Origin: a virus
IMG/VR virus record: IMGVR_UViG_3300008113_000084
Location: 25,382 to 89,381 of that record
Reading direction: 5' to 3' (one strand)
Length of the DNA: 64,000 nt
The notes beneath the pieces were generated by a model. The model saw only the letters and a list, made by a program, of their open reading frames with translations, did no database searches and was not told the origin of the DNA. Positions within the stretch are counted from its first letter, which is position 1. Each line of letters opens with the position of its first letter. Positions 1,289 to 61,274 of the stretch are shown piece after piece. The position numbers and the translations under genes are program-made.

Positions 1289-1308
1289 TCGCTCTCCTAG
1301 CTAAAGAG

Positions 1309-1339
1309 AAATGCCCAGAGCGATAGCTGCTGGGCATTT
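1309..1339 (-). terminator. Probable terminator hairpin
   Basis: A 10 bp perfect inverted repeat (AAATGCCCAG / CTGGGCATTT) followed on the minus strand by a CT-rich run. It separates the gene at 1367-1690 from the small membrane protein gene. Confidence 0.65.
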
Positions 1340-1366
1340 GATTATGACGTGTTTGTAGGGCTGTAT

Positions 1367-28021: not shown

Positions 28022-28201
28022 ATGCTCGTTGTGACGCGGAGACCTAAAGAGATTATCAGAATAAATGAGAACATAGTTGTAGAGGTTTTAATCATCAACA
28101 ATGGAAGTGTCAAGATAGGCATACAGGCTCCAAAAGATATACCGGTGATGCGTGGTGAATTAAGAGGTTCGTGCAGAAAGACTAGAAAGGATAGCGAATA
28201 A
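28022..28201 (+). CDS. csrA: CsrA/RsmA-family RNA-binding regulator
   Basis: 59 aa, usual CsrA length. Begins MLVVTRRPKEIIRINENI (CsrA N-terminal strand with the RNA-contacting LTRR-type motif), continues with VKIGIQAPKDIPVMRGEL, which matches the GIxAPKxxxVxREE core; the key Val and Arg are kept but the first Glu is Gly. The C-terminal helix is replaced by a basic tail (CRKTRKDSE). AGGAG lies six bases upstream. CsrA dimers bind GGA motifs in mRNA leaders to block or stabilise translation. The stop overlaps the next ATG (TAATG), so the two genes are coupled. Confidence 0.88.
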   Translation: MLVVTRRPKEIIRINENIVVEVLIINNGSVKIGIQAPKDIPVMRGELRGSCRKTRKDSE

Positions 28202-38993: not shown

Positions 38994-39066
38994 TGGGCTC
39001 CCTGGGATTCGAACCCAGAACCAAAGGATTATGAGTCCTCTGCTCTAACCGTTGAGCTAGGAGCCC
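38994..39066 (-). tRNA. tRNA with CAU anticodon, probably Ile (k2C) rather than Met
   Basis: Complete cloverleaf of 73 bases: 7 bp acceptor GGGCTCC/GGAGCCC, D-arm GCTC/GAGC, anticodon stem GAGGA/TCCTT with loop CTCATAA, T-arm CTGGG TTCGAAT CCCAG. CCA is not encoded. The D-loop and the TTGGTT after the anticodon stem look more like tRNA-Ile2 than elongator tRNA-Met, but the assignment is not certain. Confidence 0.9.
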
Positions 39067-59156: not shown

Positions 59157-59867
59157 TTACTTGGGCAAAGACGCCAGCAGCTTTCGGGCAGCGCCAGAAG
59201 CGTCGCCGTTAGCCAGTGGCAGTTTTTCCAGCTGCTGCACCATGGCAGCAAGTCTGGCTTTGATCATGTCGTTGATGTCTTGCGTCTTGGACTGTTCTGT
59301 CTCAAAGATGGCTTGAAACATCTCGGGGTCGTCAGAGAAGTCGTACCTGACCTTCTCGATAACTTCCTTGTAGTCCTTGCGCAGACCGACCTTCAAAATG
59401 TCTGGAGGCGTAAGAATACCCTCAGACTTCAGCATCTCGGAGATATAGTCAACGATCTCCTGAGTAAACGGTTCTTGCTCGTCGTCCTCGGGAGGACTGA
59501 GCATCAAAGCTTCAGTCATGCCCCACGCGCATTCTCCAGCGTCGGCTGGGTCAAACACGGTGGGGTCGAAGCTGTCTCCAGAAAGGACGTTGCACAGATT
59601 GATGAAGTCTGGCAGCGACTGGAAGAACGAGTCTGTAGAGACAATGGCTATAGCTGTCATCAGTCTGTCAAGTATGTTGCGAGGCAGCTTTATACCGTAG
59701 TCACTCTCGATCTCGCTCTCTATCGTCTTGGGGTCCCAATCGAAGGCTTCTGTGCCATAAGTGTCAATGAACAAAGTTAGCAGCGTTGTGGCAAAGCTGT
59801 CGGCGTTAAGCCACACCGCTTTCCTTGCTTCAAACCTTGTTCGCAGATTATGGCGCAGCTCAGCCAT
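59157..59867 (-). CDS. Hypothetical protein, 236 aa
   Basis: The ATG overlaps the stop of the upstream gene (TAATG). Acidic (ESEIESDYGIKL, SPPEDDEQEPFTQEI), helical throughout; no membrane segment. Probably a partner of the AAA+ protein because it lies directly upstream in the same operon. No family recognised. Confidence 0.6.
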   Translation of the reverse strand: MAELRHNLRTRFEARKAVWLNADSFATTLLTLFIDTYGTEAFDWDPKTIESEIESDYGIKLPRNILDRLMTAIAIVSTDSFFQSLPDFINLCNVLSGDSFDPTVFDPADAGECAWGMTEALMLSPPEDDEQEPFTQEIVDYISEMLKSEGILTPPDILKVGLRKDYKEVIEKVRYDFSDDPEMFQAIFETEQSKTQDINDMIKARLAAMVQQLEKLPLANGDASGAARKLLASLPK

Positions 59868-60139
59868 TAGATGACCGCCTCCTGGACAGGGTAGTGAGCA
59901 CGTACCAGTCGTGTGGAGGCGTTCTTGAAGTCCTCGCCCAGGAGAGACTTACCGTTCTCGTCCACCCACTCGGTCCAGCTTCCGCCTGTGAATCCAGGAA
60001 CGGACAGCCCGTTCTTTCGTGCAAAGTCCAGAGCCAGGTTGCGAGCTTCGAGGCCCTTTACCTGCTCCAGGTTGTCAGCTTCGACTACAACGGTAGCCTT
60101 AGGCCCAGACCTCTCGAATGATTCTTCTACAATACGCAT
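59867..60139 (-). CDS. Hypothetical protein, 90 aa
   Basis: Small alpha/beta protein (TVVVEADNLEQVKGLEARNL, GLSVPGFTGGSWTEWVDEN). AAAGGA precedes the ATG. First gene of the operon that leads to the AAA+ gene. No family recognised. Confidence 0.6.
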   Translation of the reverse strand: MRIVEESFERSGPKATVVVEADNLEQVKGLEARNLALDFARKNGLSVPGFTGGSWTEWVDENGKSLLGEDFKNASTRLVRAHYPVQEAVI

Positions 60140-60264: not shown

Positions 60265-60426
60265 TTATTTGCATAACTGGCGCAGGTAGCGCTTTTTAGC
60301 GCCACTGCTGGTAAGGACTGTTGGGCGCATGGACACGCCCAGCTCGATGAGCCTCTGCTGGGTAGCAGTCAGCTCGATCTGGACCTTACCCACCACAAGC
60401 TGATTCTTAAGAACGATAGTCCTCAT
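60265..60426 (-). CDS. Hypothetical small protein, 53 aa
   Basis: AAGGAG precedes the ATG at normal spacing. MRTIVLKNQLVVGKVQIELT, then QQRLIELGVSMRPTVLTSSG and a basic C-terminus (AKKRYLRQLCK). Could be a compact beta-rich plus helix fold. Short but with a good start site and terminator. Function unknown. Confidence 0.6.
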   Translation of the reverse strand: MRTIVLKNQLVVGKVQIELTATQQRLIELGVSMRPTVLTSSGAKKRYLRQLCK

Positions 60427-60507: not shown

Positions 60508-60510
60508 GCT

Positions 60511-60559
60511 AAAAACAAAACCGACCAAGCCAGCGCTTAATAGCACTGGCCTAGTCGGT
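60511..60559 (-). terminator. Strong terminator ending the non-coding region
   Basis: Long imperfect stem (ACCGAC.AGGCCAG / CTGGCT.GGTCGGT with a few mismatches) followed on the minus strand by TTTGTTTTT. It closes the 400-base gene-free stretch that lies upstream. Confidence 0.8.
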
Positions 60560-60965
60560 ATGTTTATCCACGACTCATCACGTGGTCCCATTTAACTTAG
60601 GTGGGTTACCTAACGACGTTGACTGCTACACTTCGCAGTAGCTTCCATCAACGCGACCTCATAGCGCCCACCGCTCTCCGCTCTGGTCTGTGGGAGACCT
60701 CCTATGTTTACACCGTAGGTAATGGGAGCCTTGTCGCGGTATCCAATACGACACTGGTTTATTAGGATTGCCAGTGTGTTCCTTGCAGTATGTAGTTACT
60801 GCCAACTGCCCTTTTCAGGTAGGGCACTCTTTCGAGCCGCTAGAACGCGCACCTATCTCGTGTCGGGCGTCAGCCTTAGAGACATGGGGACTGACGGAAC
60901 GCAGTAGGTCTTGTGCGACAGCTACTTAGCATTCATTTTATTCTGACGTGTTTTTTCTTTGAATT
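60560..60965 (-). ncRNA. Candidate large structured non-coding RNA
   Basis: A 400-base stretch without a minus-strand gene, ended by a strong terminator. On the minus strand it holds a chain of hairpins: AGTAG/CTACT, CGTCAG/CTGACG, GCCCT/AGGGC, GCAGTA/TACTGC, ACACTGG/CCAGTGT, GGTCT/AGACC, a long hairpin CGTTGA...TCAACG with inner GCTAC/GTAGC, and CCACG/CGTGG. No tRNA, tmRNA or RNase P signature was seen. The promoter is not obvious; it could be processed from the transcript of the 100 aa gene upstream. Confidence 0.45.
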
Positions 60966-60971
60966 AAGCAG

Positions 60972-61274
60972 TCACATGGTGATCTGCACAAGCTTGCCAG
61001 ACTCGCTGCCGTAGATGACTCGTATCTTGTCAGCGCCCAGCTCCTTCTTCAGACGAGCCAGCGGTTCGCCCCTTAGGTTGGCGATGACTCGCTTGGCTTG
61101 GGCGTAGTTCAAGGACTTGGCAGCAGCTTTCCTGGCGCAAGGCCTGCACGTTGGGCTGCCTGGATTCTTGGAGGAGGCAGCCGTCTTCAGCGAGGGTATG
61201 TCTGCCAACAGCTTAGGATTGGTCAGCAGAGACGTGATGACCGAGTCCTCGACGATTACCAGTTTCTCAGCCAT
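60972..61274 (-). CDS. Hypothetical protein, 100 aa
   Basis: GGAG precedes the ATG. It starts MAEKLVIVEDSVITSLLTNP; a central segment CRPCARKAAAK is basic and Cys-containing. No family recognised. Confidence 0.6.
   Translation of the reverse strand: MAEKLVIVEDSVITSLLTNPKLLADIPSLKTAASSKNPGSPTCRPCARKAAAKSLNYAQAKRVIANLRGEPLARLKKELGADKIRVIYGSESGKLVQITM

What the first reader, a model, noticed from the sequence alone, without database searches (positions are those of the whole stretch)
60520..60965. 400-base non-coding, hairpin-rich stretch with a strong terminator
This is the longest gene-free run in the window, and its chain of at least eight hairpins ends in a strong terminator. In a genome with genes packed tail to tail this suggests a functional RNA. 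Giant structured RNAs are known from phages, but I see no match to one by eye.
Basis: partly seen in the sequence, partly recalled or inferred. Interest (0 to 1): 0.65.

Follow-up and report, generated by a model that had tools for sequence, protein, structure and literature searches.

The report
Orphan phage RNA in swappable slot
This phage carries a roughly 420-base stretch between two genes that looks like a self-contained non-coding RNA with its own promoter and stop signal; related phages fill the same slot with unrelated RNAs, one of them a small CRISPR array, so it is probably swappable cargo of still unproven function.

Summary
The folding excess is mostly the terminator; without it the global fold is ordinary (z -1.3) and local hairpins are modestly better than chance (z -2.4). 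No Rfam family matches, even at E 10 (one meaningless miRNA hit). Syntenic relatives are more informative. A promoter model trained only on relatives picks this RNA's promoter as the best site in the 89-kb contig. Promoter and terminator recur, but the RNA body is unrelated in every relative found: about 80 bases, about 280 bases, or, in one lineage, a leader plus a type I-E-like CRISPR mini-array (29-base repeats, 31-33-base spacers). I read the locus as a cargo slot for stand-alone non-coding transcripts. The window's RNA is an orphan, seen in two records identical over this stretch. Its last hairpin (60585-60560) has the stem and ATAA tail of the relatives' repeats, hinting at a decoy CRISPR repeat (RNA anti-CRISPR), but a covariance-model test gives only E 2.9 contig-wide, so this is a lead. 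Kinship with giant structured RNAs is unsupported.

The parts
60940..60967 (-). Promoter: TTAATT (60967-60962), 16 bases, CAGAAT (60945-60940), inside the conserved block AAAACACGTCAKAATANNATG; predicted start near 60933
   Evidence: Position matrix trained on 7 promoters of relatives only: best score of the 89-kb contig, 31.2 bits, next 20.0, best in a shuffled contig 7.5. The simple sigma-70 scan picks an overlapping TTCAAA-N17-TAAAAT.
60512..60933 (-). Predicted non-coding RNA, about 420 nt, hairpin chain plus terminator
   Evidence: No ORF with coding character; bounded by promoter and terminator; ends inferred, no transcript data
60597..60926 (-). Hairpin chain upstream of the repeat-like hairpin, about ten short stem-loops (for example 60896-60868, 60825-60808, 60803-60785, 60779-60749, 60701-60687, 60613-60597)
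   Evidence: Local fold with pairs limited to 40 bases, z -2.4, 1 of 200 shuffles as good
60560..60585 (-). Repeat-like hairpin CCACG-TGATGAGT-CGTGG followed by ATAAACAT; stem and ATAA identical to the repeats of the relatives' arrays, loop 8 instead of 4 bases
   Evidence: Only match of CCACGN{3,9}CGTGGATRA in the contig; covariance model 9.0 bits, E 2.9 contig-wide, 0.018 within 561 bases
60510..60559 (-). Intrinsic terminator: 18-bp stem (60559-60520) and T-rich tail
   Evidence: folds in both MFE and centroid structure
60972..61274 (-). p100, gene upstream of the slot
   Evidence: Homologues 54-69% identical in syntenic relatives; no Pfam or PHROG family
60265..60426 (-). p53, small gene downstream of the slot; distant relatives in L054 and L141 by tblastn; similar short ORFs in L053, L055 by eye
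59867..60139 (-). p90, gene that closes the slot
   Evidence: 53-69% identical in relatives

Best explanation
The stretch is a self-contained non-coding transcription unit on the minus strand: dedicated phage promoter, RNA of about 420 nt made of a chain of hairpins, intrinsic terminator. It sits between p100 and p90 in a slot that this phage group uses for exchangeable RNA cargo. Promoter, terminator and turnover of the slot are shown by sequence comparison; transcription is inferred. The most likely role is action as RNA, without translation, against a host defence or a rival phage: one close lineage fills the same slot with a type I-E-like CRISPR mini-array, and the window's RNA ends in a hairpin with the stem and tail of that repeat, which the host's Cas6e could bind as a decoy. 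I put the transcription unit at about 0.85, the counter-defence role at about 0.35 and the decoy repeat at about 0.15.
For: No coding ORF. Promoter conserved across relatives and top-scoring in the contig. Strong terminator. Same gene order with unrelated RNA bodies behind the same promoter in G008, G009, G011, G012, G013, G020. Type I-E-like mini-array in the slot in G012, G013, G020. Shared stem and ATAA tail, unique in the contig. Local hairpins above shuffles.
Against: No transcript data. No homologue of the RNA body beyond an identical copy of the same virus, so selection on the structure cannot be shown. Global fold ordinary without the terminator. The repeat-like hairpin is weak by covariance model and was noticed after the fact. 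Host and its CRISPR type unknown; two non-periodic matches in bacterial genomes.
Confidence: 0.4

Rival explanations
1. It is a long regulatory 5' leader of the small gene p53: the terminator acts as an attenuator and the hairpins respond to some signal.
For: Promoter, RNA, terminator, then a small ORF in the same order in L053 and L075 with no clear second promoter between them. A second promoter-like site in the window (60478-60468) scores poorly with the relatives' matrix (not among the ten best).
Against: In L054 and L055 a separate, well-matching promoter lies between the RNA unit and the small ORF. In the array lineage no p53-like ORF was found. The leader body is not conserved although a sensor should be.
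Confidence: 0.2
2. It is a decaying or neutral insert: a transcription unit without present function, kept only for a short time.
For: No conservation of the body; modest folding excess; strong turnover in the slot.
Against: Promoter and strong terminator intact; the array lineage shows that functional-looking RNA can occupy the slot; phage genomes are compact.
Confidence: 0.2
3. It is a member of a family of giant ornate RNAs (GOLLD, ROOL or similar).
For: Long, hairpin-rich, in a phage genome with tRNA genes.
Against: No meaningful Rfam match at E up to 10; no homologue in relatives; body turns over between close relatives.
Confidence: 0.05
4. It is a CsrA-binding sponge RNA (CsrB/RsmZ type), matching the CsrA-like protein encoded by this phage.
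For: CsrA-like gene at 28022-28201; chain of short hairpins.
Against: GGA not enriched: 7 against 8.2 +/- 2.5 in shuffles, 3 unpaired against 2.1 +/- 1.4.
Confidence: 0.04
5. It is a DNA element such as a replication origin; the inverted repeats act at DNA level.
For: Both strands fold about equally well.
Against: Promoter and terminator frame it in one direction; relatives replace it by unrelated sequence.
Confidence: 0.04

Closest known systems
RNA anti-CRISPRs (Racr, solitary repeat units), PMC10651486
   Same: Intergenic phage RNA with its own promoter; one hairpin with the stem and 3' tail of a type I-E-like repeat
   Different: RNA is several times longer than a repeat; only the stem and ATAA match, loop 8 instead of 4; promoter about 350 bases upstream; cognate host repeat unknown; no activity shown
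Virus-borne mini-CRISPR arrays, PMC6858448 and review PMC11656645
   Same: The relatives' occupant of the same slot: repeats and unique spacers without cas6e/cas7e genes in the record
   Different: The window has one repeat-like hairpin and no repeat-spacer-repeat unit
GOLLD and ROOL RNAs (structures in PMC12286853)
   Same: Large, hairpin-rich non-coding RNA linked to phages
   Different: No sequence or structure match in Rfam; no covariation evidence; body not conserved among relatives
CsrB/RsmZ sponge RNAs
   Same: Hairpin chain; this phage encodes a CsrA-like protein (28022-28201)
   Different: GGA motifs are not enriched
Phage-encoded small RNAs in general (review PMC12197685, abstract only read)
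   Same: Promoter, untranslated RNA, terminator in a phage genome
   Different: No described member matches; transcription not yet shown here

Membership tests
RNA anti-CRISPR (Racr) | Solitary repeat in an intergenic region, no other repeat nearby | tested here: met
   One repeat-like hairpin, none else in the contig; region non-coding
RNA anti-CRISPR (Racr) | Clear match to a CRISPR repeat | tested here: not met
   Model from the relatives' repeats: 9.0 bits over 18 of 29 positions, E 2.9 contig-wide; real repeats score 37-46 bits. No database of known repeats was at hand.
RNA anti-CRISPR (Racr) | Promoter within 250 bp upstream (candidate criterion in PMC10651486) | tested here: not met
   Promoter at 60940 lies about 350 bases upstream of the hairpin
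RNA anti-CRISPR (Racr) | Host has a CRISPR-Cas system of the same subtype | not testable with these tools
   Host unknown; tandem-repeat pattern found no array in the genome collection
RNA anti-CRISPR (Racr) | Inhibits CRISPR interference, binds Cas6 | not testable with these tools
   Needs experiment
Mini-CRISPR array | At least two repeats separated by a spacer | tested here: not met
   Window RNA has a single repeat-like hairpin; the relatives G012, G013, G020 do meet it
GOLLD/ROOL and other Rfam families | Covariance-model match | tested here: not met
   None at gathering score; at E up to 10 only a meaningless miRNA match over the terminator
CsrB/RsmZ sponge RNA | Many GGA motifs in hairpin loops | tested here: not met
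   7 GGA against 8.2 in shuffles
Phage-encoded stand-alone non-coding RNA | Own promoter and terminator, no coding ORF | tested here: met
Phage-encoded stand-alone non-coding RNA | Discrete transcript detected | not testable with these tools
   No RNA-seq data available

The most novel reading that the evidence does not exclude
The slot between p100 and p90 is a dedicated RNA-weapon locus: under one conserved phage promoter, different lineages carry different counter-defence or competition RNAs (mini-CRISPR array, solitary repeat decoy, others unknown), and the window's RNA is a large multi-hairpin RNA inhibitor that ends in a Cas6e decoy.
Probability: 0.13. Interest if true: 0.8.

Novelty: new member of a known kind. 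Interest (0 to 1): 0.42.

Why it matters
Protein cargo loci for counter-defence are well known in phages; a locus whose swappable cargo is RNA would give a way to find RNA inhibitors by position and promoter instead of by sequence similarity, which fails here because the RNAs are unrelated. The shared promoter motif and the flanking proteins p100 and p90 make that search directly doable. If the window's RNA acts on CRISPR or another defence, it would extend RNA anti-CRISPRs from short solitary repeats to long structured RNAs.

Tried and rejected
Rfam at gathering score and at E 10: nothing meaningful. BLASTN of the RNA against phage records and 30 related contigs: only short chance matches. 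Giant-RNA idea: no homologue and a body that turns over. CsrA sponge: GGA not enriched. tRNA or tmRNA: none here. Degenerate CRISPR array in the window: no second repeat copy. Host array search with the tandem stem pattern in GTDB genomes: two hits, both the same non-periodic sequence and probably coding. Pattern CCACGN{3,9}CGTGGATAAACAT in viral contigs: apart from the window's own virus, seven other contigs share one conserved stretch that could be read in frame as HAPGVDKH, probably coding (reading frame judged by eye). Spacers of the relatives' arrays against phage records and held loci: no target. Repeat against phages and plasmids: only weak partial matches.

Full report
What is there. 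The window is bases 25382-89381 of an 89,381-base virus record; a second, shorter contig (L002) is identical over the whole 545-base stretch. Genes here run on the minus strand. Between p100 (60972-61274) and p53 (60265-60426) there are 545 bases without a credible gene: every ORF of 30 aa or more in it scores clearly negative with a hexamer model of this phage's genes. Read on the minus strand, the stretch begins with a promoter (60967-60940), runs through about ten short hairpins and ends in an 18-bp terminator stem with a T-rich tail (60559-60510).

Is it more than chance? The terminator is. Same-length windows across this phage often score similarly (7 of 25, few shuffles each), so the fold alone would not make the case.

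Comparison. Using the terminase and the p236 family I found relatives with the same gene order: G008/L053, G011/L055, G012/L056, G013/L057, G020/L058 and, in part, G009/L054 (its contig ends inside the slot) and L075/L141. Flanking proteins are 53-72% identical. The interval between p100 and p90 is unrelated in sequence outside the promoter block and the end next to p90, except that L054 and L055 resemble each other and L056-L058 are nearly the same. What is shared is the promoter, about TTAAAT-N16-CATAAT inside AAAACACGTCATAATANNATG, and a terminator-like hairpin behind the RNA. A position matrix made only from relatives puts its best score in the whole contig on the window's promoter (31.2 bits, next 20.0, best in a shuffled contig 7.5). 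Less close relatives (L083-L085) have only 62 bases between p100 and p90. In L075/L141 the promoter precedes a short hairpin, a terminator and the p53-like ORF only, and other genes separate it from p100. So the slot carries different RNA units in different lineages, and the window's RNA body has no known relative.

An unexpected neighbour. In G012, G013 and G020 the same slot holds a tandem array of 29-base repeats, GTCTCACCCACGCGTGCGTGGATAAGGGG, with unique 31-33-base spacers. Two more arrays with the same repeat lie elsewhere in each of these records, and all three are preceded by the same hairpin-rich leader (leader hairpin counted, where two of the expected copies in G012 were not reported although L056 shows at least a truncated one). 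Repeat length, spacing, palindromic stem and ATAA tail are those of type I-E CRISPR arrays (general knowledge). No Cas6e or Cas7e gene was found in these records; other cas genes were not searched, and the records may be incomplete. These are best read as virus-borne mini-arrays (compare PMC6858448 and PMC11656645).

Does the window's RNA take part in this? Its last hairpin before the terminator, CCACG-TGATGAGT-CGTGG-ATAAACAT, has the same ten stem bases and ATAA as the array repeat. The pattern CCACGN{3,9}CGTGGATRA occurs once in the 89-kb contig, at this place and on this strand; two unrelated records of the 24 searched also carry one each, so single matches do arise by chance. I then tested it with a covariance model built from the relatives' and G031's repeats: 9.0 bits, E 2.9 for the contig (second to a chance site inside a gene) and E 0.018 within 561 bases, against 37-46 bits for the repeats the model was built from. 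It is therefore a lead and not a member: the loop is twice as long and the 5' part does not match. The comparison was also made after seeing the arrays.

Mechanism. Shown by sequence: no coding ORF, conserved promoter, terminator, slot with turnover. Inferred: transcription; function as RNA; counter-defence role, from the company it keeps; decoy binding of a Cas6e, from the last hairpin. The main rival is a regulatory leader of p53, which the promoter-RNA-terminator-ORF order in L053 and L075 allows, but which the separate second promoters in L054 and L055 and the lack of a p53-like ORF in the array lineage argue against.

Verdict. A real, orphan, stand-alone phage RNA unit is likely (about 0.85, my judgement); its function is open, with counter-defence the best guess. 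The interest lies more in the slot than in the fold.

Noticed in passing
L058 8554-8798 and 10082-10232, L069 1035-1249 (G020); same in G012 and G013: Three type I-E-like CRISPR mini-arrays per phage, with a shared hairpin-rich leader whose 3' end (GGTGAGACCTTAG) pairs with the start of the first repeat (GGTCTCACC); no cas6e or cas7e in the records and no spacer target found in phage records.
   Followed up: partly
L064 559-970, L066 3573-3650 and 5691-5905, L070 (contigs 3300037099_000250 and 3300037108_000024): Other viral contigs with repeats GGTTGTTCCACGCGCGCGTGGATGACGCG at 61-base spacing, as minimal repeat-spacer-(half-)repeat units placed behind similar-looking repeated genes.
   Followed up: partly
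window 1300-1350 (minus strand): Second-best copy of the same promoter (20.0 bits) followed by a short terminator-like hairpin and a possible 30-odd-aa membrane-type ORF before the gene at 334-1185.
   Followed up: partly
L069 1558-1700 (G020 about 51729): A further copy of the leader hairpin AGGCTTACCCTTAAGCCT without an array behind it; it may head another structured RNA.
   Followed up: no
window 28022-28201 (+): Phage-encoded CsrA-like regulator (PHROG 9500, E 1.5e-15); its RNA target is unknown.
   Followed up: partly
L056 compared with L057/L058, start of the slot: Natural 77-base deletion in G012 removes the second promoter just before the array, leaving the first promoter to drive it.
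   Followed up: no
L069 about 1266-1340: One of the arrays in G020 runs directly into a tRNA-like gene with a CAT anticodon (recognised by eye); the window's own tRNA-Met at 38994-39066 shares its start.
   Followed up: no
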